Positions 1,480 through 27,049 of a stretch of 34,121 bases of DNA are shown here, piece after piece. Position numbers and translations under genes: made by a program. The notes beneath the pieces were generated by a model that searched no databases, was not told the origin of the DNA, and was given only the letters and a program-made list of their open reading frames with translations. The stretch comes from a virus: positions 1 to 34,121 of IMG/VR virus record IMGVR_UViG_3300012002_000090; one strand, written 5' to 3'. How positions within the stretch are numbered: position 1 is the stretch's first letter; every line of letters begins with the position of its first letter.

Positions 1480-2652
1480 TCACTTCTCGCCGACAGCGAC
1501 AGCGCGGGGGTTCACGACGGCAAAGCCGACGATTTCCACGAACGCCCAGCCCTTCACGGTCCGCTTGAATCCGTACATGTTGAACGGCTCGGAGAACAGT
1601 TCAACGCGGATGCCCATCTCGCCCATGTACTCGGGTCCGGTGCAAGCGTAGAAGGTGCCCGCGGGGACAACCTCCTCAACACCAGTGCCGGCCGCGGTCA
1701 CGATCTGAGCGTTCAAGAAGCTACCAATGTAGCCAGCCAGAATCAGCTCACGCTCGGTGACCGGGTCCACCTGAGTGGACATGGTCTTGATGACATCAGA
1801 GAGTTCAGCCCGGTTGATCAAGAACTTCTCGACCACCAGACGGTGACGCTCAACCTGGAACCGCACATCTTCGAACGCCGCCACACCCAGCGTGCTGAAG
1901 GTGGTGGGAACGTTGATGGTGCGCGCCGCGCGGTCAATCAGAGCCTGGCCCCGCTTGTCCTCTTCGACCTCAATCTCCTGCCGAGCAGTGTCCTGAGCCC
2001 GGTCGAGAACGTCGAAGTTCATCTGATAGATGTCCTCGATGTCCACGGTCGGGAACGAAGCAATCTTGAACTCGCTGGGCTGGACATACTTGCCGTAGAG
2101 CCGAGACTCAATGGCCTGTCCGTCCTGTCCGACGATCCACGCGGTAGCACGGACGTCCTTCGAGATGCGGAACAGTTCGCCCTGAGCGAGCGGACGCACC
2201 CGGTAGACCTTCCGAGCCCAACCCTCGTAGTCCACGATGTCCTTGATGGGGAGCAGCAGCTCCTGACCAAGAACCTTGAAGCCCTCGGGGTCCTGCATCG
2301 CCGAAGCGAGCACCTCTCGGCGCGCCTCCGGGGTCATGTCGGACTGCTTGTTGAAAGCGGACTTCGACATCGCGGTTCGGGAAGTGTTCTGGAGCAGATG
2401 CGCGATCTGGGTCAGAGCATCTTCCTTCGAGTTGGCGTTGATCTGCCCTTCCTTGTTGAAGAGGCGGTTCTGAGAGTTCAGCGCGCCTTTGATGGCCGAC
2501 CGACCACCAAAGGCACGGGGGTTATAATCCCCGCTCTCGTCAAAGATTTGCTCCTCGCCCTTAGAAGCCAGACGGGTCTTCTTGGGGGTCGAAACGCCGC
2601 CCTTGGAACCACCAAGGACCTGCTTGTAAGGGTTGTTCTTCTGAGTTGCCAT
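1480..2652 (-). CDS. Major capsid protein (HK97-fold type)
   Basis: Probable major capsid protein of 390 residues that forms the icosahedral head shell. The first 100 residues are charged and low in hydrophobics (KNNPYKQVLGG, then SKEDALTQIAHLLQNTSR), as expected for an N-terminal arm or a cleaved propeptide. From about residue 120 comes a folded domain (LLLPIKDIVDYEGWARK, FPTVDIEDIYQMNFDVL) ending in a beta-rich tail (YGFKRTVKGWAFVEIVGFAV). AAAGGAGG lies 3 nt before ATG 2658 and 9 nt before ATG 2652. The spacing favours 2652, giving MATQKNN. The placement after protease-scaffold and before a strong terminator agrees with the call. The family is assigned from sequence character and gene order, without a search. 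Confidence 0.8.
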   Translation of the reverse strand: MATQKNNPYKQVLGGSKGGVSTPKKTRLASKGEEQIFDESGDYNPRAFGGRSAIKGALNSQNRLFNKEGQINANSKEDALTQIAHLLQNTSRTAMSKSAFNKQSDMTPEARREVLASAMQDPEGFKVLGQELLLPIKDIVDYEGWARKVYRVRPLAQGELFRISKDVRATAWIVGQDGQAIESRLYGKYVQPSEFKIASFPTVDIEDIYQMNFDVLDRAQDTARQEIEVEEDKRGQALIDRAARTINVPTTFSTLGVAAFEDVRFQVERHRLVVEKFLINRAELSDVIKTMSTQVDPVTERELILAGYIGSFLNAQIVTAAGTGVEEVVPAGTFYACTGPEYMGEMGIRVELFSEPFNMYGFKRTVKGWAFVEIVGFAVVNPRAVAVGEK

Positions 2653-2681
2653 GGTCATGTGCCTCCTTTAGTCAGCCCGAA

Positions 2682-3461
2682 TCAGGCCGCCTCCTCTGGC
2701 ACGTTAGTGAAGTGAACACCGAGATACGGGTCGCTTGCGGTCGGGAGCTGAATCACCCGACCCACGTACGCGCCTTCGGTCGACACATTCGTGAACAAGC
2801 CTTCCAGACCCGCCGTGTCTCCACCGCAGTAGAGGTTGGATCCGGTCCCGGTCAGCGTATAAGTCTGCGCAGTGTCAAACTGCGTGGTGAAGATGATGGA
2901 CGGCGCCTTAACGACCGTCAGACGGCCTTCAGAAATCGAGTCTACATCGTTCAACCGGTTGAAGAAGTTCAGTCCCTGGAACTGATAGTCGTTCTGGGTC
3001 AGGTCGAAGGTGAAGGTCACAAAGACCGTATCTCCGTCGGCGACTTCGGTAGGCGACGCGTCCCAGGTCAAAGTGCCGTTGGTGGCGTTCAACGTGTAGT
3101 CACCCGCGGCGGTGATGGCGGTGCCACCTGCGCTGGTGCGCACTACCACGTTACTCACGTTGGACCGGCTCAGGTTGGTCGCCGCGTCGGCAGCCACAAC
3201 CAGAGGCTCATCCACGATGACCGAAGTGCCCAGGGAAGCCTTGTTCCACTTGGCCACGCCGAGAACGTCGGCGCCGTCAGCCAGCACCAACTCGCCATTG
3301 GCATCGAGAGACACCATCTGGCCTTGAAGGATCGTAGCGGTGTCGGCGGCCTTAAAGACGCCGAGGTCCCGCTCGATCTGAGACCGACTCAGGTCCAGGC
3401 CCGACGCGAAAACGTCGGACTGGAATGCCCCGAGACGACCAGTGTTACGAATCGAACCCAT
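2682..3461 (-). CDS. Probable capsid decoration or head-fibre-like protein
   Basis: A 259-residue protein rich in Thr, Ala, Asp and Asn with beta-strand alternation throughout and no membrane segment. A segment near residues 45-75 (QMVSLDANGELVLADGADVLG) has the look of phage decoration or head-fibre proteins, where a short beta domain reports a control, value and label pattern. A strong AAGGAG sits 8 nt before ATG 3461. The gene stands between the protease-scaffold gene and the capsid gene, with a 29-nt gap to the capsid start, so it should be made in large amounts. An alternative is a head-stabilising or minor capsid protein. Family assignment is inference. Confidence 0.6.
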   Translation of the reverse strand: MGSIRNTGRLGAFQSDVFASGLDLSRSQIERDLGVFKAADTATILQGQMVSLDANGELVLADGADVLGVAKWNKASLGTSVIVDEPLVVAADAATNLSRSNVSNVVVRTSAGGTAITAAGDYTLNATNGTLTWDASPTEVADGDTVFVTFTFDLTQNDYQFQGLNFFNRLNDVDSISEGRLTVVKAPSIIFTTQFDTAQTYTLTGTGSNLYCGGDTAGLEGLFTNVSTEGAYVGRVIQLPTASDPYLGVHFTNVPEEAA

Positions 3462-3481
3462 TGATCATTCTCCTTTCCGAC

Positions 3482-6208
3482 TCACTGTCGGGCACCCAGA
3501 CGGGCAGTTTTTGTACCGCGCAGTGCAGTACGTAGTTTCGACGGCCCATCGTCTTGGACGCTGGGTTCCGGCGAGGGGTTGAGCGTCATGTTTCCGTTCA
3601 AAACGGCTTGACGCTGTTCTGCGGACACCGCTTCTACGGGGTCCACAAACTCGGCAGCGGTCACAGACGGCACTCGATGCGCCTGCTTGCTAAGGTCGCG
3701 CTCGGCAGACTTCAGATAGTCCGAAGATTCTTTTACCAAGTCGCCAGCGCGCTGCGCCAGCCGGTCAATTTCTTTGTCCGCGGCATCTTCAAACGCAGCT
3801 TCGATGAGGTGCACGGCCAGTTCGTTGCTCATTGCCGTGTACTCCAACGGACGGCCTGACACGGCGTCATAGCCGACCGTCTTGTCGTTGGCGAGCTGCA
3901 CTCCGAGGGCTTCTTTCAGCGGCGACTCCTCTAGCCCGAGCGCCTGTCGCTTGGCGACAATCCGCAGGGCGCGGGTGAAATCAGACATGGCCTGCTTGCG
4001 CGCCGCCTGAATCTGCGACTTTGCCCATCGCTGTACGCGGGCCTCGTACGCCTTTCGGCTCATCGGGTCTTCGTCCGAAGGACCCTTGTCCAGCTGCTTC
4101 CACTGCGACTCGATGGACTGCGCCTTCACCTGGAAAGCTTTCAGGTCCTTGCCAGCCAGCGTAAACTCGCCGCTTTCGTGGTCGAAGTGAGTCACCATCG
4201 CCACGCGCTTGCCGTCAGAGACCCGGCTTCCGACCATCTTCTTGGCCAGTCGCTCCTGGTGGTCACGCGCGCCATCATCCAAAGACGACTGGTCCATGTT
4301 CCAGGGCTTTCGCTTTTCGCGCATGTCCGACTCCTGCCGGTCCGTGGTGCGCAGCCCCGGAGTCAGAGAATCATTGCCGAGTTCATGGTCAGACGCGCGG
4401 TCTTGCTGGGCCGTGTCGACTTCCGTTTCCCGCTTGTCTTCCATGTCAGACTCAGCGTCGTTTCGAACATCAGACTCAACGTTGCCGCGGTCTGCAAAGC
4501 CTTGCATGTCGTCTTCGCCTTCGCCGGCGACCGATTCCTTCGTGTACTTGTCAGCGAACTCTTTCATGTCATCGAGCGCGTGCTCGACAACCTGAGCCAC
4601 TTTACCGTGCAGGGACCCGCCGAACGTCTTAACGGTAGCGGTCAGCCCACGTCGCTCCAGCGACGCCAGAATGTTGACCGGCTTCTTGGCGTTCGGAATC
4701 ACCGCGACGGGCATGCCTTCGGCGTTTTTGACCTCCGCCGTTCCGGCCTTGGTCATGGACACAGTCCAGTCGCTGTAGGTTGAGGCGGTATGCATCGAAG
4801 CGGGCATCACGCCCATCTCCTCGGGCGTAAATTGGTCGTCGTCTTCCAACTCGTCGAGGTCTTCGATCGAGTTGTCTTCTTCTTCTTCTTCGCCAGACGG
4901 GTCGACCACGTCGACGCCGCCCTCACCGTCGTCCGTGATGTTGATAATCACGTCCGAGTCTTTGGGCATCGGCGCGTCTGCGGCCTCACGGTCATTGACC
5001 GGCGTGAAATCTGTGTCCTCAGCCTTCAGCCGGGCCGCGCCCGCATCCTCGGCTTCCACTTCGGCCATCTCGACCCGCGAACCCGAATCGGGCATCGCCA
5101 AGTCCATGGCCTCCTCCAGCGTCTCCGCTGCGTACGTGTCGCTGGGGTCACCATCGACTCGAACCACGACAAACTTCATGGCAGTTTTCTCCTTCCCGGC
5201 GGCTTTCTTGCGCTTCTTCGTAGCGGCGAGCAGCTGCCGGGTTTCGTTGTCCAAAGACTCGTCACCACTGCTGGCCTGTCGGTTGAGCACCTCAAACTGA
5301 GACGCTTTTGGGTCGGCGGGCATGTGAACGCGACTGTATTCGTCGAACTCCACGCCGCGGCACCATTCCGCTGCTTTTCGAATCGTGTAGCCGTCGTCTG
5401 CGCGCAGTTCGACGAAGTCAGCGGCTTGAAATTTCCGATTGCGGCGGGTCGCTTCCCGCTTTGCTTCTGCTGCAGTGATTTTCTTCCATCCGTCGCGCCC
5501 GTTCGCGGAGGCCCATAGCGTGCCTTTGTTTCCCGCGCGGATGTGCGTACAGAAGTCAGAGGTCGACTGCGCTACGTTGCCGCACACATTGCACAGCGTC
5601 TCTGCGCAATTGCATCCCATGGACCCGAACCGCAACTGACCGGTTTCTACACCTTTAGCGAAGGTGGGGTCTTTACGTCGGTCGACGGCAACCAAGATCT
5701 CGACAAAGTCGTCTTTAACGACCGTTCCGCACTTTTTGCATCCGAGGCCGGATTCATCTCGGTTTTTGCGGTCTGCGGTCTTGTTGCCGCATCCAGGGCA
5801 TTCTGCAAGAGGCGTAGAACTGTCGTTGTAGTGCGCGTCCAAAAGGATTCCACGGGCGCGTTTCGGGTTTTCGGTTCGATGGTTTACGTGGTGGGGCTTC
5901 TCCCGATAGGTGAGATACACCGCCGTCTTTAGTCGGGGGTCAAATCGGAGAAGTTCCGACCGCTCAAAACCGTCGTGATTGTCGTTAAAGACCTGAGAAG
6001 TGTTGGCGCGAATAACCTCGAACAGATAGTTCTTCGGGTCGTCAGAGATGGCGTAGTCCGCTGCGCGACGCTTCAGAATTCCGCGTACGTCGATCTTTGC
6101 GGACCCGTCAAGGTAGTAAGAGTCCGCCGCATCGAGCTGCGCCGTCTTCTTCCGCTTGCCCTCGACGATGGTCCCGAGGTGCTGGCACTTCCCGACCTTC
6201 CGGAACAT
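3482..6208 (-). CDS. Prohead protease fused to scaffold-like domain (908 aa)
   Basis: The N-terminal 230 residues look like a prohead maturation serine protease of the herpesvirus-assemblin clan. A His in VNHR (H110) is followed 86 residues later by Ser in FGSMG (S196), the His/Ser pair expected of the family. Inserted between them is a zinc ribbon (C137-x2-C140, C157-x2-C160), and a second Cys-rich patch follows the Ser (C199, C201, C206, C209, C220, H222). After residue 340 the chain becomes acidic and helical, with a Glu run (EEEEEEDNSIEDLDELEDDDQ is split by Asn), then charged coiled-coil-like sequence to the end, typical of scaffolds. An internal start at codon 344 has a perfect ribosome site. 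It is upstream of the capsid gene, as in T4-like and lambda-like heads. The start ATG abuts the TGA of a 35-codon frame. Confidence 0.75.
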   Translation of the reverse strand: MFRKVGKCQHLGTIVEGKRKKTAQLDAADSYYLDGSAKIDVRGILKRRAADYAISDDPKNYLFEVIRANTSQVFNDNHDGFERSELLRFDPRLKTAVYLTYREKPHHVNHRTENPKRARGILLDAHYNDSSTPLAECPGCGNKTADRKNRDESGLGCKKCGTVVKDDFVEILVAVDRRKDPTFAKGVETGQLRFGSMGCNCAETLCNVCGNVAQSTSDFCTHIRAGNKGTLWASANGRDGWKKITAAEAKREATRRNRKFQAADFVELRADDGYTIRKAAEWCRGVEFDEYSRVHMPADPKASQFEVLNRQASSGDESLDNETRQLLAATKKRKKAAGKEKTAMKFVVVRVDGDPSDTYAAETLEEAMDLAMPDSGSRVEMAEVEAEDAGAARLKAEDTDFTPVNDREAADAPMPKDSDVIINITDDGEGGVDVVDPSGEEEEEDNSIEDLDELEDDDQFTPEEMGVMPASMHTASTYSDWTVSMTKAGTAEVKNAEGMPVAVIPNAKKPVNILASLERRGLTATVKTFGGSLHGKVAQVVEHALDDMKEFADKYTKESVAGEGEDDMQGFADRGNVESDVRNDAESDMEDKRETEVDTAQQDRASDHELGNDSLTPGLRTTDRQESDMREKRKPWNMDQSSLDDGARDHQERLAKKMVGSRVSDGKRVAMVTHFDHESGEFTLAGKDLKAFQVKAQSIESQWKQLDKGPSDEDPMSRKAYEARVQRWAKSQIQAARKQAMSDFTRALRIVAKRQALGLEESPLKEALGVQLANDKTVGYDAVSGRPLEYTAMSNELAVHLIEAAFEDAADKEIDRLAQRAGDLVKESSDYLKSAERDLSKQAHRVPSVTAAEFVDPVEAVSAEQRQAVLNGNMTLNPSPEPSVQDDGPSKLRTALRGTKTARLGARQ
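5177..5194 (-). promoter_or_regulatory. Internal ribosome binding site and ATG for a separate scaffold product
   Basis: AAGGAG at 5194-5189 precedes an in-frame ATG (5179-5177) by 9 nt, inside the 908-codon gene. Starting here would give a 565-residue protein beginning MKFVVVRVDGDPSD without the protease part. This mirrors lambda C/Nu3, where scaffold is made from an internal start in the protease gene. The site is better than the gene's own start site. Confidence 0.7.
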
Positions 6209-6316
6209 TCAGTCCTCGTCGTCCGGAGTCTCTTGGTCAGGAGACGGCTCGGGCACGTCGAGGGGCACAAAGTGCTGGTCCGTCTCTTCCGGAGAGCCGT
6301 TCTTTTTGAACCCCAT
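6209..6316 (-). CDS. Possible 35-residue acidic peptide
   Basis: ATG 6316 opens a 35-codon frame starting MGFKKNGSPEETDQ and ending PDQETPDDED. Its TGA touches the ATG of the protease-scaffold gene (TGAATG). GAGG, the ribosome site for that next gene, lies inside the last codons. It fills the only gap between portal and protease. No clear ribosome site precedes its ATG, and GTG 6325 is an alternative start. It is probably real as a coupled mini-gene, but chance is possible. Confidence 0.4.
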   Translation of the reverse strand: MGFKKNGSPEETDQHFVPLDVPEPSPDQETPDDED

Positions 6317-6356
6317 GACGTACACAAAGTACTGTTACGGGTGATTTTGGGTATGT

Positions 6357-8522
6357 TTAGAGGCCGTCGTATCCGTCCATTTTGCCAAAACCCTGAATAT
6401 TTTCAGCTAGTTCCGCCAGTCTGCGACGCTCATTCCTGGAGGCACTCCGAACAACTTTCATCTCTTTGAGGATGTCTACAAGTTGGTCTATACCAGATGC
6501 GGGGTAGTCTTCTTCAATCAAGAAGTCCTCGACGGCTTCCATGATCTCGTCGTTGTCACCGCCTTTGATGGCGTCGCGGACTTTGGGGCTGTGGAAAGCA
6601 TCTACCCACGGGTCGTCGTCGGGCGGATTGCCGCTCATCAGGTCAACGAGCGATTCGACGTCTTTTTTGTGCCACATGCCGATGCGGTCACGGTTCCCGA
6701 ACGGGTTCGGCTTGGCTGGAGACGGCTCGGCCCCGTCAGTCGCCGACACACTCGCCCCTTCAGGTTCCGGCGGCTCACCACCGCCGAGGTCGTCGCCGAA
6801 AGCGTCACCTGGGATAGGCGGAAGCGCGCCGCCAAAGCCGCCGCCGCCGCCTGTGGCGTCTTCCTGGAGAAGTTCGGGGTAGTCCTTGAAGACCTCCTGC
6901 TCTTTTTTGTGGTCTGCAAGGCGCTGCTTCGACTCTTCCTCGAAGTCCCGACCGGCCAGCGACATTTTCGTGGTTTTGCTGAACCGCACGCCCATGTTTT
7001 CGAGCGTCTGCATCGCGTTGATCAGCTCGCTGTCCACGGTGGGGTCGAGCGATTGTGACCACTGCATCGTCGGGATGATCCAGCGGTGGTCTTCCGAGAT
7101 TTCAGACGATGACCGTCGGACCCGGACCCGAGAGTCCAGCTCCGCCTGCGTGGGCTTAACCCACTTGTTCACCATCGCCATCTTTTTCCAGAACTTCGGG
7201 TACAGGAACGCGTCCTCGAAGTAGGTCCGATGCGCCTTCAGACGCCGCAGGAACACCGTCAGACCGGTCGCAGCCGACGCATACGTAACTTCGCCGTGGA
7301 GGAAAGCTTTCGAAATGCCCAGAGCAACAAGCTTTACGCGCTCGATCAGCTCGTAGTGCTTGTCGATGGTCATGACTCGGTCGGTAGTGCCGACCAGTTC
7401 AAAGTTGATACCGTAGTGGTAGATTAACCATGCGTTCACATCGAGTTCGGCCTGGGCAAGAAGCTCCAAAAGCTTTCGCTCTTCTTCTGGTCCAGGGATC
7501 CAACCGTTGGCGGGGTTGCCGAGCTTCGCGACTTTGAGCGGGCCGGCGTGCCTGCGCGCGGTGGCGATAGACGCATTAAATATCGAATCTTCGTACATGA
7601 GGATCCGCCACATCCGGCTGATGATGCTGGTTCCGCGGGTGTCGTAAGGATGCAGCTTCCGCGGAAGAAACGTGAAGTTGTTCGGGTCGAGCGGGATGTT
7701 TTGATTACTCTGAAGCCGGTGCAGCAGCTCGGCTGGCATGGACTCCCGGACCTGGCGAAGCTGCGGATTGGTTGAGTTCAGCACTTTTTGCAGTCGCGGG
7801 TCAGGCTTGAACTCCACGACAGGGTCCATCCGGATAAACGGCGCGTCGATGACTTCGAGCTGGTCGGGGTTGTGGAGCGCCATGTACGTCCAGCAACCTT
7901 TGGAGTCGTCCCAGAACAAGTGCGGAGCCGCCTCTCCAGTAACCAGGAATTCTCGGGTCATGAACGGCAGATTCGACCGGAGCTTCGCCTCGTCGGCCGA
8001 GTACTCCATGATGTCCTTGACTTCGCCCTCGACGCCTTCGCCTGTCAGCTCGAACTCGCCGAAGGGGAGTTCGCTGATCAGGTCGACGCCGTTTCCGATG
8101 ACGTGGTCGAGCTTGTAGAACATCCGGAAGTATCGATTCGCCAAAATCCGGTGAACGGGGTACTGCTGTCGGTCCGGGCTCTCGAACTCCGGCTGGTATG
8201 GGCGTTGTACCGTCTGGAAGGTGTCGCCGCCTCCGCCTCCGCCTCCCATACCGCCGCCAGGTAAGTTCGCGGTGTGTCCGCGGGCGGCAGCGTTCGTGGC
8301 TTGCCGAGCTGCTTGGTAGTTGGCGCCTGCGCCGGGACTCAGCGCAGCTTCTTTCGGCAAGATTCCTGACAGGACGTCTTGGACGCTGCCCAGGTCGTTG
8401 GACAGCTTCGGCATGAAGCTCTCGAAGCGGTCGCGCATGGATTCAACCTGCTGCGGAGTCAGGCCGTGCGCGTCCCACTGGCGGACCGTGCGTCCGCTTC
8501 CGTCGTAGAGGCGATTAGTCAT
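6357..8522 (-). CDS. Portal protein (721 aa)
   Basis: Portal protein: forms the dodecameric ring through which terminase packages DNA. The N-terminal 105 residues are a variable arm with a Gly run (GGGMGGGGGGGD). The core then shows portal-like helices and strands (HRILANRYFRMFYKLDHVIG, FMTREFLVTGEAAPHLFWDD, MYEDSIFNASIATARRHAG, VTYASAATGLTVFLRRL). The C-terminal 200 residues are low-complexity (GGGGGFGG, then a Pro/Glu-rich stretch) and end in a charged helical tail. At 721 residues it is larger than the T4 portal, mainly from these ends. GGAAGG lies 9 nt before ATG 8522. The A of this ATG is the last base of the previous gene's TGA. Gene order (terminase, large protein, portal, protease, capsid) supports it. 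Confidence 0.85.
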   Translation of the reverse strand: MTNRLYDGSGRTVRQWDAHGLTPQQVESMRDRFESFMPKLSNDLGSVQDVLSGILPKEAALSPGAGANYQAARQATNAAARGHTANLPGGGMGGGGGGGDTFQTVQRPYQPEFESPDRQQYPVHRILANRYFRMFYKLDHVIGNGVDLISELPFGEFELTGEGVEGEVKDIMEYSADEAKLRSNLPFMTREFLVTGEAAPHLFWDDSKGCWTYMALHNPDQLEVIDAPFIRMDPVVEFKPDPRLQKVLNSTNPQLRQVRESMPAELLHRLQSNQNIPLDPNNFTFLPRKLHPYDTRGTSIISRMWRILMYEDSIFNASIATARRHAGPLKVAKLGNPANGWIPGPEEERKLLELLAQAELDVNAWLIYHYGINFELVGTTDRVMTIDKHYELIERVKLVALGISKAFLHGEVTYASAATGLTVFLRRLKAHRTYFEDAFLYPKFWKKMAMVNKWVKPTQAELDSRVRVRRSSSEISEDHRWIIPTMQWSQSLDPTVDSELINAMQTLENMGVRFSKTTKMSLAGRDFEEESKQRLADHKKEQEVFKDYPELLQEDATGGGGGFGGALPPIPGDAFGDDLGGGEPPEPEGASVSATDGAEPSPAKPNPFGNRDRIGMWHKKDVESLVDLMSGNPPDDDPWVDAFHSPKVRDAIKGGDNDEIMEAVEDFLIEEDYPASGIDQLVDILKEMKVVRSASRNERRRLAELAENIQGFGKMDGYDGL

Positions 8523-11500
8523 CAGTGATTTCCTTCCGTCAACAGTTGGTCACGCCCGCCGTCCGGGTCGACTTCGAGGTCTTCCGAGATTTCGTCGACG
8601 TCCGTCCAGTCGTTTGTGTTCGGGCTGATGCCAAATCCCAAAGCCTCCCGGCTGTTCGACCCCTGTACGGTGAGCTTTTTGGTGACAGACCACCAATCCC
8701 CGTCGAAGGGCACAGCTTTGTCGTCGATGTAGTGGTCTGCAACCGGTTTCGGGCCCGAGACGATTCCCGTAAACGGGATGTTGTGGTCGCGGAGGTGTCG
8801 CCCGATCTCTTCGGCAAAGTGCTGTCGCTGTTCAGGACTGCGAGCTTTCGACATCCGGGCAGTGTGAATGAGCACTTCCCATCCCAGGTCGACGAAGGTC
8901 TGCATGGCCAGCGCAGCACCTTTGACCGGGTCTGCGAGCCCAGGCTGACCAGACGCTTCTTCGTTGTCGTCGTCCGGGTCTCCGAGGAGCGTCCCGTCGA
9001 GGTCTACGCACACGACGGGCTTGTTGGCTCGGATTCGTCGACCTTCTTCGTTGGTTATAGTCAGGGAACGCTCTAAATTTCGCGAATAGACGTAGCCACC
9101 GCGGTCTGAGTCATGCACCGGAATCATGCGGTTCTCTTTTGCGTACTCACGGGCTTTTTGCCGGGTCATGCGCTTTTGGTTGACGAGTTCCCCATCCAAG
9201 AACTCCGACACCTCTACCAGTTCCATTCCTCTGTCTTTGGGCTCAGCGGGCCTGGGCCTAACGCTCGGGGCCGGAGGTCCAGGCAGCGGCAAAGGACGAA
9301 CCTGCGCGACCTTCGCAGCCCACAGCCGCCCTCGACGATACTCGTAATACAAGGGACGAGATTCGCCTGGTGACCACACGCCGTATTCTCCGCCTTGGTC
9401 CTCATTGATCAAGATTTCACGGTCAGAAGGCGCTGGACGGTGACTGACGTCAGGCATTTTCCTGAGCTTGTGGTACACGGCCCGCGCAGCGTCGCTGACT
9501 GCGACGTCCGGACGGACCCACAAGTTCTTTGAGCCCGCCCACTTGAGCACTGCGCGGTAGAGACGGGTGCCGATGCCCTGGTTTTGGAAGATGTCTTCGA
9601 CCCGCGCCATCGTCACGCGGGCCAGGCCGTTTTCTTCATCAATGATGCCTTGGATGGTGCCGGCCAGGATGTCTTCGTAGAAGGCGTAGAACGCGAATTC
9701 GTTTTCGTCTTCTTCATACGACAGCGTGATGTCGTTGGGCGAAACTTCGAAGCGCTGCGCCTGGCGGTCAGAGCCCCGGAGGAATTTCGCGAACCGGTCA
9801 GCTTTCAGCGCGTTCTCGTACATCACTCGAACGTCGCTATCTTCGGGCCACGCAGCGATATTGTCGGCGCGGTACTCTTCGTCATCACTTGTAGCGGCAG
9901 TATTCACTGCGTCTTCGAGCCACTCATCTCGCAGGTCTTGGAGCCACTGGACAGTGTGTTCAAGGATTTCCGGATGGTCGAAGAACATCCCCAAAACGCG
10001 GTTTGACGGGTGACTGTTGTTTTCTAGAATGTTGTCCAACGCGATGCCGAATCCTTCTTCGTCACCTTCCAAAAAACTCGCAATCGCGTGTACTTGGTCT
10101 CCTGAACGGGGTAGAGTCCCTCTTTGCAGCAAGTCGTCCCGAAGCTCGAACACCGACTTCGACCCCAGCTTCAGGTTCGGGTCCTCGTACTGATTCTCTG
10201 AATGATAAGAGTCAGACCACCGCGTTGCGTCGTCGAGTTCGTGCGGCGGATGCTTATCATTGATAGTCAAGTCGCCCAGTTCAAAGCCTGAAGGAGTAGC
10301 GCGTCGGTTGCGCAAGTACAACACGCGCTCGTAGGCGTCGCGGGCGGCCTCTGCGAGCTGCTCGTCAGGGATGTCGTCCCGGTTGAACTGGTCGTGCGCG
10401 ATGCCTTGCAGGTGCTCGAAGTACTCTTGCTCAGTGAGATGCCTGCGTCCGTTGTACAGCGCGCCGGTCAGGTAAGCGTGGTGTAGCGCCGCCATTTCAT
10501 TGAGTGCGGTCTGAACTGGGTCCAGGTCGTAGTGCGTGGAGTCTTCGTCGTCGGCGTTATCAAGCCGCTCGGCGAGTTCAGCATGCTCAGCGTCAAGGTC
10601 TTCAGCCAGTTCAAAGTCGCCCCGCTCGTAGGCGGCAAGCGCGGCCTCTTCAAGTTCCTGTAGGCGGTCTGCCTTCTTCCAGAGCTCGACGTGGGCGCGG
10701 CGCAGCGTCAACGGGTCCACCTGGACCGCGTTGATTTCTAGGCCAGTCAGGCGCTCGTCCACTGCAAGTTCTTTGATGGCTTCGCGCTGCGCGCTTGTGA
10801 GAGGTGTCTCGGCGTCGACCGCGGCGTATCGAATTTGCGGATTGCGCACGTAAACCAGGCGCACCAAGCCAGTGGCCCGCATGACCAAGTCCATGCGGTC
10901 TGTGGGAGATAGGTCCGCGTCGGAAAAGCGAGGCGGGAGGTACGCGCCGATTGCGCGGTGGTCTTCGCCTCGGACCTGTCCGTCGTGCTCCATCATGACC
11001 TTTGAGCCGTCCGGCGCCAGGAAACCTACGGCGGGCCAAGGCCCGTCACCTCCGCGCTCTTCAAGGATGCGCCGCAGCATCGCGTCGCCCTCTCGCTTGC
11101 TGAGCGCGCGGGGCTTCTTCGGAGGTGCCGGACGTGCGGACGGTGCCGGAGGTGCGTCTGGCACACCATAGCGCTGCCGCGCGTACGCCAAGCCCTCGTC
11201 GAAGTCGACAACCTCGTAGACTTCGGGTTCGGTCCTGACCGCTACGCCCTCGTCCCAAACAGTGTGCGTCACGGTTAGCGGCGTGACGCTGACCGCTTCA
11301 AAGTCACCGTTGGGCGCATCGCGGGTGTACTCGACGCGGTTCGGGTCTGGGCGGCGGGCACGCCAGGCCGAGGCGCCTTGGCGCGTCCCGAACGCCGTCG
11401 GGGCCACCGACAGCTGGTCAGCAATCACGCTCTTCACTTCGTCGAGCGTTTCACGCAGGCCCGTGGTCTTGAATGCGCCCTCGTAAATGGGAGTGAACCA

Positions 11501-11773
11501 AACGCCGTCTTCCGTGACAAAAAACTCTGCTACCGGATTGTTGTCGAGGGTCAGCAGCTGTTTCAACCGCTGGGCGCCTTCGCGTCGGCGGTACGGCGCC
11601 CAAGAATCAGCGCCATGAGGGTCGTCGTTGTCAGTGACCGCCGGGAACGCGGTGTCCTGCGTGTCCAATCGGCCCGGCTCCTCAGTGTCCCAAAACGGGT
11701 TCGAATGAGAGTCCGGACTTTCATCCGTCGGATTGACGGCGCCACGCACCGGTGTAAGCTTAGGTGTCACCAT
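8522..11773 (-). CDS. Large multi-domain protein with GNAT and HAD domains (1083 aa)
   Basis: The start chosen is ATG 11773, overlapping the terminase TGA and with AGGA 5 nt upstream. The frame continues upstream only as a shadow of the terminase. Residues 1-680 hold no family I recognise, with a Pro/Ala linker near 220 and a Glu/Ala-rich helical stretch. Around residues 680-785 is an acetyltransferase-like (GNAT) domain: ARVTMARVEDIFQNQGIGTR carries the Q-x-x-G-x-G acetyl-CoA loop, then SDAARAVYHKL. After a Pro-rich linker, residues 918-1040 form a HAD phosphatase domain: VDLDGTLLGD (D924, D926), HTARMS, SGPKPVADHYIDDKA. The HAD part resembles polynucleotide kinase 3'-phosphatase or nucleotidase-like phage domains. 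The place between terminase and portal suggests a virion or packaging link. The substrate is unknown. Confidence 0.8.
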   Translation of the reverse strand: MVTPKLTPVRGAVNPTDESPDSHSNPFWDTEEPGRLDTQDTAFPAVTDNDDPHGADSWAPYRRREGAQRLKQLLTLDNNPVAEFFVTEDGVWFTPIYEGAFKTTGLRETLDEVKSVIADQLSVAPTAFGTRQGASAWRARRPDPNRVEYTRDAPNGDFEAVSVTPLTVTHTVWDEGVAVRTEPEVYEVVDFDEGLAYARQRYGVPDAPPAPSARPAPPKKPRALSKREGDAMLRRILEERGGDGPWPAVGFLAPDGSKVMMEHDGQVRGEDHRAIGAYLPPRFSDADLSPTDRMDLVMRATGLVRLVYVRNPQIRYAAVDAETPLTSAQREAIKELAVDERLTGLEINAVQVDPLTLRRAHVELWKKADRLQELEEAALAAYERGDFELAEDLDAEHAELAERLDNADDEDSTHYDLDPVQTALNEMAALHHAYLTGALYNGRRHLTEQEYFEHLQGIAHDQFNRDDIPDEQLAEAARDAYERVLYLRNRRATPSGFELGDLTINDKHPPHELDDATRWSDSYHSENQYEDPNLKLGSKSVFELRDDLLQRGTLPRSGDQVHAIASFLEGDEEGFGIALDNILENNSHPSNRVLGMFFDHPEILEHTVQWLQDLRDEWLEDAVNTAATSDDEEYRADNIAAWPEDSDVRVMYENALKADRFAKFLRGSDRQAQRFEVSPNDITLSYEEDENEFAFYAFYEDILAGTIQGIIDEENGLARVTMARVEDIFQNQGIGTRLYRAVLKWAGSKNLWVRPDVAVSDAARAVYHKLRKMPDVSHRPAPSDREILINEDQGGEYGVWSPGESRPLYYEYRRGRLWAAKVAQVRPLPLPGPPAPSVRPRPAEPKDRGMELVEVSEFLDGELVNQKRMTRQKAREYAKENRMIPVHDSDRGGYVYSRNLERSLTITNEEGRRIRANKPVVCVDLDGTLLGDPDDDNEEASGQPGLADPVKGAALAMQTFVDLGWEVLIHTARMSKARSPEQRQHFAEEIGRHLRDHNIPFTGIVSGPKPVADHYIDDKAVPFDGDWWSVTKKLTVQGSNSREALGFGISPNTNDWTDVDEISEDLEVDPDGGRDQLLTEGNH

Positions 11774-13827
11774 CCTCTTCCTGACCTCCAATTCCGAGGA
11801 CCGCCTCCGCGACCGCCCGGGTTGTAAACGCCGCCCTGCCGTGCATACAAAAATCGCGCCGAGTCCGCCTCCGACCGACGACGTGCAGCTTCCCGAGAAC
11901 GGTCGTCGTGCTTCTGCGAATATCCTTGCTCTTGCACCATCTTGTGTACATGCACAACGACTTGCGCCACGTCGTTCGATTCGTAGCCGCGCTGTTCGCC
12001 CTTTTTGCTGTTCCAGACCTTGCCCGTCTCTGGGTCTCGTTCGAGCGCTTCCAGTTCGTAGAGCGCGCAGCACTGCGGACTCATCAGTGGTGGGTCGACG
12101 ATGAACTCACCCGTTTTTTCGCTGACTTCACCGGGCTCAGGAGGCAGCATCCGCACCAGCCCTGAGTAGGCGTCCGTCCGAAACCGCGTCCAGTCGTCGT
12201 TTCGTAGTGACTTGGTCTCGGCTCGGATCCCAGACCGCCGGATTTGCTGAATCAGTTGCGTGCTGTTCCAGCGGTCGAACTCTACCGTGGCAAGGTGCAT
12301 CATGCGCTGGAGCTTCACCAAGACCGCGTGCACGTTATCGTAGTAGACCTCGCAGCCGACTGGCGGCAGGATCCTCGCCACCCAGTCAATTACTGTGACC
12401 ATCCGCTCCGTGCCCTGGTCGTCGACCACCGTTTCTCCGTGCCCGCACGCTCCGGCAAAAGCGTCGAAATTCTTACCCGCGTCAAACGCCACGAAGTGGT
12501 TTCCCTCCGAAACCAGGCTTGCATGAAAGACCTGGACTCCGATGTATTCGTGGCCCTCTTCCGTGAACTGGGGATAACGGAACTCCGCCTTCGGTTCGTG
12601 GTTGCCCACCACCAGGTCGCGAAAGCGCTCTCGGTCGTGAATCAGAGGACTGGCGGCCATCGGCGGATTGGCGCCGAAGTCACGCTCCGCACCTATCGGG
12701 TCTTTGGCGTACATCTGCGCGAAGTTTTCTCGGGGCTCGTACGGATTGAACTCCCACGTCGCGTATTTGTAAGCAAGCATCCCCGGTACCTTGCCGCCCT
12801 CGGCTTCTCGCCAGAGCCGCATGGACTTGTCGTTTTTGTGTCGGGGTGAGCTGACCGAACACATCAAACCAAGCCAGCGCTGTCGGTCGTGGTCTTTTGC
12901 GCGGGACCGGACCGTCTGCAGCGAGTTGTCGGTCGCGCGGTAGATCTCGTCCGCTGACATGGCAGAGTCGCCACCTTGCATGTACGCAATCTCGTCGACA
13001 CCGTTGAATAGTCGGGTTCGGCCTCGCAGACCGCTGGAGTTCGAGTTCAAAGAGTTGATGATCAGCGCCCCGAGGTCTGGATGCTCGTTCTTGATGACCT
13101 TGTCGGTTTCGCTGTACTCCCATCGCTCCATGCCCGGCGGGGTGGACTGGTGCTTTTCTTCGTCTTTGACCCAAGACGTGTAGCGCTTGAACCAAGGAGC
13201 GTCTGCGCGGAAAGCGCGGTACTTGGCCCAAATAGTGTCCTTGCCCTGCACTTCATTCGAAGCCAAGAACGTCATTTCCCATGGGTCTTTGATGACCAGT
13301 CCAAGGTAGGCGTGCAGCCCGCCCGGATGCGAGTGCGCGATGGTCAAGATGCGGTGTTCGACGTAGGTGCCGATGAGCGCCGCCGTGACGCTCTTTCCGG
13401 ACCGCTGTCCGCATACCAGGTGCAGCGCATTGACCTTTTCGAGAAGCCCGTCTTCTTCGAGTTCGCGTCGCGATGAGCTGCAGCGCGGACACACGTCGTC
13501 GTTCTTTTCTTCGGACCATTCGAGCAAGATCTCACGTCGAAGCTCGTCCGGTGTACGTACCATCGAGTCGACGGGTCCGGTGTTGCACACCGGACACCGA
13601 AGCTGGAACACGTCACGGATGATTTGATAGCTGCGCTTGTAGTTGAACAAGCTTGGACTGTCTGCGTAGGACGGGTTCACGATCCACTGGACTGCGTTAG
13701 GCGCAGGCTTGCAGAGCGCACGGCGCTCGTCATCCCGCGGGTCTGGTCCCGCGGGGCGCCCTTCGCACGCAGCCTTCAAGTCTGCGAAGAGGTCAGCCTG
13801 GAAGGTGGTCGTAGTGGACAGGTGCAC
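11767..13827 (-). CDS. terL: Terminase large subunit
   Basis: ATPase-nuclease motor that cuts and packages phage DNA into the prohead. The ATPase has a Walker A G140-QRSGKS146, and a Walker B-like LFNGVDEIA around 273-281 with the catalytic Glu. The nuclease shows an acidic strand HFVAFDAG (D449) and a later YYDN (D497), as in RNase H-like terminase nucleases. Before Walker A sits a four-Cys zinc-ribbon-like unit (C78-x2-C81, C113-x2-C116), which is uncommon. The C-terminus is Gly/Arg-rich. GTG 13827 overlaps the upstream gene by 35 nt with no good ribosome site, so the start is only fairly sure. The stop overlaps the next ATG. It is 686 residues, within the family range. Confidence 0.88.
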   Translation of the reverse strand: MHLSTTTTFQADLFADLKAACEGRPAGPDPRDDERRALCKPAPNAVQWIVNPSYADSPSLFNYKRSYQIIRDVFQLRCPVCNTGPVDSMVRTPDELRREILLEWSEEKNDDVCPRCSSSRRELEEDGLLEKVNALHLVCGQRSGKSVTAALIGTYVEHRILTIAHSHPGGLHAYLGLVIKDPWEMTFLASNEVQGKDTIWAKYRAFRADAPWFKRYTSWVKDEEKHQSTPPGMERWEYSETDKVIKNEHPDLGALIINSLNSNSSGLRGRTRLFNGVDEIAYMQGGDSAMSADEIYRATDNSLQTVRSRAKDHDRQRWLGLMCSVSSPRHKNDKSMRLWREAEGGKVPGMLAYKYATWEFNPYEPRENFAQMYAKDPIGAERDFGANPPMAASPLIHDRERFRDLVVGNHEPKAEFRYPQFTEEGHEYIGVQVFHASLVSEGNHFVAFDAGKNFDAFAGACGHGETVVDDQGTERMVTVIDWVARILPPVGCEVYYDNVHAVLVKLQRMMHLATVEFDRWNSTQLIQQIRRSGIRAETKSLRNDDWTRFRTDAYSGLVRMLPPEPGEVSEKTGEFIVDPPLMSPQCCALYELEALERDPETGKVWNSKKGEQRGYESNDVAQVVVHVHKMVQEQGYSQKHDDRSREAARRRSEADSARFLYARQGGVYNPGGRGGGPRNWRSGRGW

Positions 13828-24958: not shown

Positions 24959-27049
24959 TCAGCCTTCGCAGGCTTTGCAGTCGTCGGAGAAGGCGCTGGA
25001 GGCCACGTCGGCGTTCAAAACGGACTCGCTGCGCACGTAGTACAGCGTCTTGACGCCCTCTTCCCAGGCCGAGAGGTGTACCTTGTTGAACCACTTCGCC
25101 GGCACGTCGTGCGGGAAGAACAGGTTCAGGCTCTGGGCTTGACAGACATACGGTTGACGCTGCGCAGCCTGTCGAACTACCGCCATCTGGTTGATTTCAG
25201 GCGCGGTCAAGAACACCCTCTTGACGTTTTCGGGCAGCGGAAGGTGCTGCACCGAGCCTTGATTCACCGCAATGTCGTTCCAAGTCCCTGCGTTGTCAAG
25301 GCCGTGCTCAGCGAGAACAGCCTGAAGTTGAGGGTTTTGCACAAAGAAGGTGCCCTTGGCCGTCTTGAACGTGTAAGCGTTCGCGCGAATCGGCTCAATA
25401 CCTGCCGAGACCTGCCCTACGATCGTCGAGTTCGTCATGGTCGGAGCGACGGCCAACAGGTGGGTGTTCCGGCGTCCGGTCCCTTTGCACCACTCGGGCT
25501 CACCGTAAATGTTCGCAAGGTCGCGGGAAGCTTGGTCAGCTTTTTGGTGGATGTGCTTGAACACCTCTGCGTTCAGCTGCATCGCCCCCATCGAATCAAA
25601 CGGCAACATCCGCTGCTGAAGCAGGGTATGCCAGCCCAAGACCCCGAGACCCAACGCCCGCGATTTGGTCGCGAACCGCACCGCGTTTTTGAGGCCTGGC
25701 TTGTTGCGACCGTAAAGCAGAAAGTTCTGCATGACGCCGTCCAAGAAGTAGATGGACAACCTCACCAGGTCGGTGTTCTTCCATTCATCGTACTTGGACA
25801 CGTTCAACGAACTCAGGCAGCACACGAAGCTGTGGTCTGCGTCCGAGTGCAACGTAATTTCGGAGTTTCCGGTCATAACGCCGCAGGCCAGTGCAAACTT
25901 TCCTGTGGTAGGAATGGTCGGACAGTACACCGTCGCGACTTCGTCCAGCTTCTCCACCGATATGACTTTACGCCAGCCCGTCACCTCAGCGGCACCCGCC
26001 AATCGCCCCGCTGATTCTAGATAACACCCAGCTTCAAGGTTCTCGGTCGTGACCTCTCGGTACTTCTCGTTGTCGTCTTTCGCGGCGAACCACCTGTGCC
26101 GTCCGTTTGCCTTGATGACCGTGCCGTCCGAAAGCGTGACAGCGTAGAGCTGGTCTACACCGCGGGGCGCGAATGATGCCGTCTCGACCCAGTCGTTGCC
26201 GTCCCAGACCTCAACATTCTGCCCGCACAAGTCCGCAATGCGCTGCGGGCCTTGCCGAGTCACCACCAACGTGTCGCCGTGCAAGCAACAAATGTTAGTA
26301 TAACGAACATCCAGTCCACGCTCTTTGTATCCGGGCGGATTCGCACGATTCACCGTGTCCTTGAACATGATGTACGGCTCGCCGGTTTCGAGCCGAGTCT
26401 GGAGCACTTTCAGCCACAACGCACGTGCGTCGTGGTCGCCGAGCTGCACCCGCTTCATGAACTCGTCGGTGACCACCACGCAATGATGGATGTTCAAGCA
26501 CTGTCGGTTCGGGTCGCCTTCAGGCCGCCGGATCCGAAGGAACTCCTCGATGTCCGGATGGTCGATCGGAAGGTTCACGGACGACGCCCCTCTGCGCGTG
26601 CTGCCCTGACTTACGGACACAGTGGCGGTGTCGTAAACCTTCGCCCAGGGTACGACGCCGTCTGACCGACCATTGAACGTGATGTCCTTGCCGCGTCCAC
26701 GGATTTGGCTCAGGTCGATGCCCACGCCTCCACCGTTCTTCGAAAGCATGGCCTGTTCGTGAACTTTCCGGAAGATGGAGTCTACGGAGTCGTCCGGTGC
26801 AACGCCGAAGCACGAAATCGGAAGTCCCCGGCCCGTTCCGAGATTGCTCAGAACCGGACTCGATGGACACAGCCAGCCTTTCCACATGACGTCAAAGAAC
26901 TGGTCTTCAAGGTCGGGCCGACCCAGACCTTGAGCCGCTGCACGGGCAACCCTGCGGTACATTTCCGGGATCGATTCGCCGTTAAACAGGTAACCATTTT
27001 CTACGGTCTGACGACCTGCGGTCGTCATCCATTCTGGCGTATCGCTCAC
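24959..27049 (-). CDS. nrdA: Class I ribonucleotide reductase large subunit with intein
   Basis: Converts ribonucleotides to deoxyribonucleotides together with the small subunit. GTG 27049 overlaps the nrdB stop (GTGA). Visible active-site features: C80 (PISCFG), N252-I-C254 followed after the intein by S396-E397 (together NxCxE), C410/C411 (FVCCLSSLN), the YY radical-transfer pair Y670-Y671 (TLYYVRS), and the C-terminal C691-K-A-C694. N252, C254 and E397 form the catalytic N/C/E trio. A 141-residue intein interrupts it directly after C254. Mature length is about 555 residues, shorter than E. coli NrdA and lacking an obvious N-terminal ATP cone. It forms an operon with nrdB and the SbcC-like gene. 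Confidence 0.93.
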   Translation of the reverse strand: MSDTPEWMTTAGRQTVENGYLFNGESIPEMYRRVARAAAQGLGRPDLEDQFFDVMWKGWLCPSSPVLSNLGTGRGLPISCFGVAPDDSVDSIFRKVHEQAMLSKNGGGVGIDLSQIRGRGKDITFNGRSDGVVPWAKVYDTATVSVSQGSTRRGASSVNLPIDHPDIEEFLRIRRPEGDPNRQCLNIHHCVVVTDEFMKRVQLGDHDARALWLKVLQTRLETGEPYIMFKDTVNRANPPGYKERGLDVRYTNICCLHGDTLVVTRQGPQRIADLCGQNVEVWDGNDWVETASFAPRGVDQLYAVTLSDGTVIKANGRHRWFAAKDDNEKYREVTTENLEAGCYLESAGRLAGAAEVTGWRKVISVEKLDEVATVYCPTIPTTGKFALACGVMTGNSEITLHSDADHSFVCCLSSLNVSKYDEWKNTDLVRLSIYFLDGVMQNFLLYGRNKPGLKNAVRFATKSRALGLGVLGWHTLLQQRMLPFDSMGAMQLNAEVFKHIHQKADQASRDLANIYGEPEWCKGTGRRNTHLLAVAPTMTNSTIVGQVSAGIEPIRANAYTFKTAKGTFFVQNPQLQAVLAEHGLDNAGTWNDIAVNQGSVQHLPLPENVKRVFLTAPEINQMAVVRQAAQRQPYVCQAQSLNLFFPHDVPAKWFNKVHLSAWEEGVKTLYYVRSESVLNADVASSAFSDDCKACEG
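25865..26287 (-). other. Mini-intein in nrdA (141 residues)
   Basis: Residues 255-395 of the nrdA product. It starts CLHGDTLVVT, a typical block A with Cys1. Block B is DGTVIKANGRHRWF, with the His kept but Asn in place of the usual Thr. The end reads FALACGVMTGN, with terminal Asn and Ser as the +1 residue. The usual penultimate His is Gly. No homing endonuclease is inserted; 141 residues is close to the splicing minimum. Removal joins NIC to SEITL, restoring the conserved NxCxE active-site motif, so splicing should be needed for activity. Confidence 0.9.

What the first reader, a model, noticed from the sequence alone, without database searches (positions are those of the whole stretch)
3482..6208. 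Prohead protease fused in frame to a long scaffold, with a nested scaffold start
One 908-codon frame carries a His/Ser protease with two metal-binding Cys patches and an acidic, helical scaffold-like half. AAGGAG with 9-nt spacing to the Met at codon 344 would make a separate 565-residue scaffold. This echoes lambda C/Nu3 but with a zinc-ribbon protease of a different look.
Basis: partly seen in the sequence, partly recalled or inferred. Interest (0 to 1): 0.65.

Follow-up and report, generated by a model that had tools for sequence, protein, structure and literature searches.

The report
Nested protease–scaffold gene in phages
One long phage gene encodes a capsid-maturing protease joined to the scaffold it destroys, and ribosome-binding signals inside the gene, conserved across many related environmental phages, suggest that the scaffold is also made on its own, an arrangement like that of herpesviruses (protein products not yet shown).

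Summary
In detail: an unbroken 908-codon frame lies at 3482-6208, on the minus strand, between the portal and major-capsid genes. Residues 1-343 are a prohead protease. AlphaFold2 gives pLDDT 87.5, and the model matches T4 gp21 (Z 12.3, 2.4 A over 142 residues) and, weakly, cytomegalovirus protease. It is not the lambda-C protease type. Residues 344-908 are acidic and helical, and are the only scaffold candidate.

The fusion is conserved in 27 relatives. Three relatives instead carry separate protease and scaffold genes, split near the same junction.

AAGGAG, 9 nt before Met344, is real. Support for its use is moderate: recurring SD+ATG at this junction, odds ratio 7 over other in-frame ATGs, but only p=0.017 against synonymous recoding.

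An SD+Met there recurs in 17 of 25 fused genes (recoding null mean 4, maximum 8). The SD is spelled by different residues and by rare codons, and is absent from the three split relatives. In the window this second site is altered (GAGGAG before GTG467/ATG468).

Best reading: full-length protease-scaffold plus one or two scaffold-only products, a phage counterpart of herpesvirus UL26/UL26.5. Internal initiation is inferred; no protein data exist.

The parts
3482..6208 (-). protease-scaffold fusion ORF, 908 aa, 100 kDa
   Evidence: homologous unbroken ORFs in 27 relatives
5303..6208 (-). prohead protease domain, residues 1-302 (modelled as 1-343)
   Evidence: PHROG 18299; AF2 pLDDT 87.5 pTM 0.84; T4 gp21 5jbl Z 12.3 rmsd 2.4 over 142 residues, HCMV protease Z 5.9
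5879..5881 (-). codon of His110, proposed catalytic His
   Evidence: invariant in 27 aligned proteases; role inferred
5621..5623 (-). codon of Ser196 (SMG motif), proposed catalytic Ser
   Evidence: S196-M197-G198 invariant in 27; role inferred
5729..5800 (-). four-Cys insert C137-C140-C157-C160, possible zinc ribbon, optional in the family
   Evidence: absent in L036, L037, L038, L041, L043, L045; Pfam Zn_Ribbon_TF only E 0.013, below cut-off
5543..5614 (-). second Cys patch C199/C201/C206/C209/C220/H222
   Evidence: C206, C209, C220 invariant, H222 nearly invariant (Cys in L041), C199/C201 variable
5189..5194 (-). AAGGAG Shine-Dalgarno of nested start J1
5177..5179 (-). ATG codon 344, nested start J1 (565-aa product)
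   Evidence: SD+ATG at this junction in L012, L020, L014, L017, L002, L019, L032, L037
4979..5179 (-). small alpha/beta domain MKFVVVRVDG..., residues 344-410, present in only some relatives
   Evidence: present in win, L010, L011, L012, L020 of 13 aligned; pLDDT 74-87 over most of 341-400, first strand at 344-351
4808..4978 (-). very acidic linker, residues 411-467 (42% D/E)
   Evidence: low pLDDT
4817..4822 (-). GAGGAG, SD-like, of shifted nested start J2
4805..4810 (-). GTG467/ATG468, candidate nested start J2 in this phage (441-aa product from ATG468, 48.5 kDa)
   Evidence: dG -8.9; relatives have a canonical SD+Met a few codons downstream
3482..4807 (-). conserved scaffold-like C-terminal half, residues 468-908
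   Evidence: weak but real similarity to the stand-alone scaffold of L045 (E 5e-7)
6357..8522 (-). portal
   Evidence: PHROG 16240 E 3e-77
2682..3461 (-). probable decoration/Ig-like protein
   Evidence: PHROG 807 E 3e-7
1480..2658 (-). major capsid protein
   Evidence: PHROG 2522 E 5e-63

Best explanation
The gene encodes a T4 gp21/herpes-assemblin-fold prohead protease (residues 1 to about 302) continuous with the capsid scaffold. The full-length 100-kDa protein is incorporated through its scaffold half, which brings the protease into the prohead, while a larger number of protease-free scaffold molecules is made from the same mRNA by ribosomes that start inside the frame: at Met344 (565 aa), at GTG467/ATG468 (441 aa), or at both. 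After assembly the protease cleaves the scaffold. Shown here: the ORF, its conservation, the protease fold, the gene order, nucleotide-level conservation of an internal SD and start in the family, and natural relatives in which the two halves are separate genes. Inferred: that the second half is the scaffold, that the internal starts are used, stoichiometry, cleavage.
For: Protease: PHROG 18299 in 12/12 members; AF2 pLDDT 87.5 and T4 gp21 match Z 12.3; invariant H110 and S196. Position portal-[gene]-decoration-MCP with no other scaffold candidate. Fusion conserved in 27 relatives without a stop. L045, L038 and L041 have a separate protease and next to it a separate scaffold of 572-621 aa in the same gene order, similar in size to the 565-aa J1 product. 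Nested start J2: 17/25 fused genes have SD dG <= -7 before an ATG in one 30-column bin, recoding null mean 4.2, maximum 8; combined p_syn 7e-7 over 20 genes, control ATGs 4.2% <= -7; rare AGG/AGA 13/17 against 1.4 expected, and GGA 8/8 at 9-24% usage; SD encoded by unlike residues (RRR, GGP, KGG, KEA); no internal SD <= -7 in the three unfused scaffolds. Nested start J1: 9/39 ATGs <= -7 against 22/545, odds 7, p 7e-5, including the closest relatives L012 and L020, by different codons.
Against: No protein, ribosome-profiling or mass-spectrometry data. J1 is weak against the recoding null (p 0.017 pooled, 0.11 for the window alone) and missing in several relatives. The window lacks the canonical J2 Met; GAGGAG before codons 467/468 is explained about as well by the conserved PEExG peptide (p_syn 0.34). 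The p values treat related genes as independent. The scaffold role of the C-terminal half rests on position, composition and distant similarity; its model is poor (mean pLDDT 54 for the whole protein).
Confidence: 0.66

Rival explanations
1. P2 gpO type: a single protease-scaffold product, made once, separated only by self-cleavage; the internal SDs are not used.
For: P2 gpO is a known single protein with an N-terminal protease and C-terminal scaffold that cleaves itself (PMC7552001). Window J1 and J2 signals are individually compatible with codon composition.
Against: Across the family J2 is held at nucleotide level by rare codons and by differing peptides, and is absent from unfused scaffolds; self-cleavage needs no SD.
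Confidence: 0.2
2. Nested initiation occurs in this phage only at the second site (GTG467/ATG468), and Met344 is merely the first residue of a domain that was inserted as a unit.
For: The MKF domain that begins at 344 is present in only 5 of 13 aligned members, J2 is far better conserved than J1, and L011 has the domain without a start there.
Against: SD+ATG also occurs at J1 in relatives without that domain (L002, L014, L017), and the three closest members keep the SD with different codons.
Confidence: 0.25
3. The C-terminal half is not the scaffold but a cargo or internal head protein carried by the protease.
For: In mycobacteriophage Alice the same protease type is fused to a long C-terminal region with other domains (1511 aa). 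The C-terminal half has no database family.
Against: No other scaffold candidate between portal and capsid genes; same composition and position as scaffolds; separate gene in the scaffold position in L045, L038 and L041.
Confidence: 0.12

Closest known systems
Herpesvirus UL26/UL26.5 (assemblin and scaffold)
   Same: Same protease fold class (HCMV protease Z 5.5-5.9); protease at the N-terminus of a scaffold; shorter in-frame ORF sharing the 3' end encodes scaffold alone (PMC4498786).
   Different: UL26.5 has its own promoter and transcript (Liu and Roizman 1991, cited in PMC4498786); here an internal SD is proposed and no sigma-70-like promoter was found. Here possibly two nested starts. Not shown to be inherited from a common fused ancestor.
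Lambda C/Nu3
   Same: Protease and scaffold in one gene, scaffold gene overlapping in frame (PMC8508860, citing Shaw and Murialdo 1980).
   Different: Lambda C is, from general knowledge, of the ClpP/SppA-like S49 type; here the fold is the T4 gp21/assemblin one. Convergent arrangement, not the same family.
P2 gpO
   Same: Protease-scaffold fusion in one chain (PMC7552001).
   Different: No nested scaffold start is described in the text read; processed by self-cleavage.
T4 gp21 / gp22 and jumbo-phage proteases (PHROG 18299)
   Same: Protease fold; capsid position. The T4 record annotates an internal initiation in gene 21 giving a smaller protein.
   Different: Scaffold gp22 is a separate gene; the internal start in gene 21 lies near the protease N-terminus and does not release a scaffold.
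Virus Rctr197k gp047 and PHROG 2774 proteins (Alice gp90)
   Same: Fused protease; Rctr197k is 40% identical over 83% in the same gene order.
   Different: Deposited as 'similar to hypothetical protein' or hypothetical; no function or nested start noted.

Membership tests
Assemblin-fold procapsid proteases (T4 gp21, herpesvirus assemblin) | fold | tested here: met
   5jbl_A Z 12.3, 2.4 A over 142 residues, well above unrelated rows; HCMV protease Z 5.9 over 139
Assemblin-fold procapsid proteases (T4 gp21, herpesvirus assemblin) | conserved catalytic His and Ser | tested here: met
   H110 and S196 invariant in 27; placement in one active site not measured, third residue not assigned
Assemblin-fold procapsid proteases (T4 gp21, herpesvirus assemblin) | sequence-profile similarity to T4 gp21 | tested here: inconclusive
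   hhalign of A3 against the single T4 gp21 sequence gave probability 0.1
Assemblin-fold procapsid proteases (T4 gp21, herpesvirus assemblin) | cleaves scaffold and capsid proteins | not testable with these tools
   needs protein experiments
PHROG 18299 head maturation protease | profile match | tested here: met
   E 7.7e-21 for the window, 12/12 members
Lambda C/Nu3 | S49/ClpP-type protease domain | tested here: not met
   no such Pfam match; fold is T4 gp21-like
Lambda C/Nu3 | scaffold translated from an internal in-frame start | tested here: inconclusive
   internal SD+start signals present and conserved in the family; product not shown
Herpesvirus UL26/UL26.5 | assemblin protease N-terminal to scaffold in one frame | tested here: met
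   scaffold role inferred
Herpesvirus UL26/UL26.5 | separate promoter for the short product | tested here: inconclusive
   no sigma-70-like promoter at 3400-6600; phage promoters may differ
P2 gpO | protease-scaffold fusion | tested here: met
   scaffold role inferred; homology to gpO not tested

The most novel reading that the evidence does not exclude
A three-tier nested capsid-assembly gene: one frame yields the full protease-scaffold, a long scaffold from the junction start (Met344) and a short scaffold from the second start (about codon 467). This would be a bacteriophage version of UL26/UL26.5, with the homologous protease fold but made by internal translation initiation, which tunes the protease-to-scaffold ratio and arose when separate protease and scaffold genes fused.
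Probability: 0.35. Interest if true: 0.65.

Novelty: new variant of a known kind. Interest (0 to 1): 0.5.

Why it matters
A fused protease-scaffold with an internal scaffold start is known in herpesviruses, and an unrelated protease does the same in lambda. Finding it in tailed phages that carry the herpes/T4-type protease would put the herpesvirus arrangement, with a homologous enzyme, on the phage side, in a family where unfused relatives exist, so the fusion step can be traced. It also identifies probable scaffolds in a group of large phages whose scaffold genes are filed as 'hypothetical', and it shows that gene callers miss the nested products.

Tried and rejected
Lambda-type protease: rejected (no S49/ClpP match; fold match T4 gp21). 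Sequence search of PDB with one sequence and with the 12-member profile: no hits. hhalign to single T4 gp21: uninformative. Foldseek E-values alone in PDB were not significant (0.23); the VIA-align second look gave the clear T4 gp21 match. Full-length AF2 model too poor to search (mean pLDDT 54). Host/prophage relatives in genome contigs: none confirmed. Internal promoter in place of internal SD: none found. Met368 and Met372 of the window have strong SD-like GGAGGAGG, but with spacings of 2 and 14 nt, and no recurrence in relatives, so they were not taken as starts. Alice/Tonenili: an SD of dG -12 before an internal Met (735/464), outside any scaffold-like region; not followed. Papers: no description of this nested arrangement in phages with a T4-type protease was found in nine completed text searches, which is weak evidence because most subscription papers are missing.

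Full report
Observation. The window is a 34,121-base IMG/VR virus record, probably a fragment. The reported frame is exact at 3482-6208 but on the minus strand: 908 codons, no stop. AAGGAG at 5189-5194 stands 9 nt before the ATG of codon 344. Gene order on the minus strand is terminase, a 1183-aa multidomain ORF, portal, this gene, a probable decoration protein, major capsid protein. No other gene between portal and capsid could be the scaffold.

The protease. PHROG 18299 (head maturation protease) matches at E 7.7e-21, and all 12 aligned family members match it. An AlphaFold2 model of residues 1-343 from 27 sequences has pLDDT 87.5 and pTM 0.84. VIA-align places T4 gp21 first, Z 12.3, 2.4 A over 142 residues; human cytomegalovirus protease follows at Z 5.9, and unrelated rows fall to 3.6 and below. 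Foldseek alone ranks T4 gp21 first but not significantly in PDB; against viral models it finds phage G gp19 and jumbo-phage proteins with E to 1e-17. H110, D176, S196-M197-G198, C206, C209 and C220 are invariant in 27 sequences. The first Cys patch (C137/C140/C157/C160) is missing in six relatives and so is not part of the core. Zinc binding is inferred only.

The fusion. Relatives were collected from IMG/VR and INPHARED. The frame is continuous through both halves in 27 relatives besides the window, 870-1080 aa in most, longer where inteins or inserts occur (two are cut at their 5' end by the contig). The closest is L012 (51-55% identity); Virus Rctr197k, 40%, has the same gene order. Three relatives, L045, L038 and L041, have the protease as its own gene (303-315 aa) followed at once by a 572-621-aa gene and then the decoration and capsid genes. 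The separate gene of L045 resembles the window's C-terminal half (E 5e-7). By eye, the stand-alone scaffold begins near window residue 305-315, so Met344 lies some 30 residues inside the homologous scaffold.

Nested start 1 (J1, window Met344). SD strength was scored as duplex energy to the 16S tail. Within 34-62 residues after the protease end motif, 9 of 39 ATGs from 21 genes have dG <= -7, against 22 of 545 elsewhere in the same genes (odds 7, p 7e-5). The SD is spelled differently in the window (AAG GAG AAA), L012 (CAG GAG AGA) and L020 (AGG AGA). But Lys/Glu-rich sequence makes SDs by itself: against synonymous recoding the pooled p is 0.017 and for the window alone 0.11; in an unbiased scan J1 gives 8 genes where 3.8 are expected. 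J1 is therefore plausible, not established.

Nested start 2 (J2). At the start of the next conserved domain (MRFxxxYxxWxVEVTxxGN) most members have a Met preceded by a strong SD. An unbiased scan of 25 fused genes finds 17 with dG <= -7 in one 30-column bin; 60 synonymous recodings gave mean 4.2 and maximum 8. Over 20 genes the pooled recoding p is 7e-7; other in-frame ATGs reach -7 in 4.2%. High-GC members use AGG/AGA for 13 of 17 Arg codons in the SD zone where 1.4 are expected (p 5e-6), and eight low-GC members all use GGA (9-24% usage) for the first Gly of GGPS. Since the encoding residues differ (RRR, KGG, GGP), it is the nucleotide signal that is kept. The three unfused scaffolds have no internal ATG with such an SD; the two homologous Mets score -0.6 and 0.3. 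These p values treat related genes as independent and are optimistic; the contrasts are large enough to survive that. In the window the canonical Met is gone; the nearest candidates are GTG467/ATG468 behind GAGGAG (dG -8.9, p_syn 0.34) and Met472 with a poor SD. L012 has GTG503 behind AAGGAGG (dG -11.4).

Mechanism. The most likely reading is that full-length protein carries the protease into the prohead through its scaffold half, while internal initiation supplies additional protease-free scaffold, which the protease later digests. Separate from this, J1 and J2 may both be used, giving three products (100, 62 and 48 kDa). Nothing here shows protein.

Comparison. Herpesvirus UL26 and UL26.5 overlap in frame with identical 3' ends, the longer carrying the protease (PMC4498786). 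Lambda and P2 encode protease and scaffold in a single gene (PMC8508860; PMC7552001). T4 gene 21 has an annotated internal start, but near its N-terminus. The present case shares fold class with T4 and herpesviruses and arrangement with herpesviruses and lambda. It is a new variant of a known kind. Common descent of the arrangement with herpesviruses is not claimed.

Verdict.

Noticed in passing
L034:4995-9074 and L030:3381-7688 (L031 same): Intein-like inserts inside the protease itself, next to the active-site motifs: in L034 after SMG (SMG|CFVPGTLV...VHN|C), in L030 just after the His motif (NHR|CFREGTPV...FN|S).
   Followed up: partly
window 24959-27049 (-): Ribonucleotide reductase large subunit carries an intein-like insert (Pfam Intein_splicing E 2.7e-6).
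   Followed up: no
window 8522-12073 (-): 1183-aa ORF between terminase and portal with a GNAT acetyltransferase domain and a C-terminal phosphatase/kinase-like region; in Rctr197k the ORF at this place is 6.5 kb.
   Followed up: no
window 6209-6316 (-): 35-codon acidic small ORF directly upstream of the protease, its TGA abutting the protease ATG (TGAATG), possible translational coupling.
   Followed up: no
window 1480-2658; L011:10013-11722; L010:5378-7266: Major capsid N-terminus varies greatly: 392 aa in the window, 569 aa with a Gln-rich extension in L011; possible extra internal scaffold or propeptide.
   Followed up: no
L004:6878-11413, L005:6878-10588: Mycobacteriophages Alice and Tonenili fuse the same protease type to a long different C-terminal region (PHROG 2774, filed as unknown) and share a very strong SD (GAGGAGG) before an internal Met.
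   Followed up: no
L008:6001-9114: Eggerthella phage LE2-3 gene annotated 'tRNA synthetase' matches the protease families PHROG 2774 (E 6e-41) and 18299; probably misannotated.
   Followed up: no
L045:6350-6660: The stand-alone scaffold of L045 has simple acidic/basic repeats (KKDDFKED, EEDKK), absent from the window's scaffold half.
   Followed up: no
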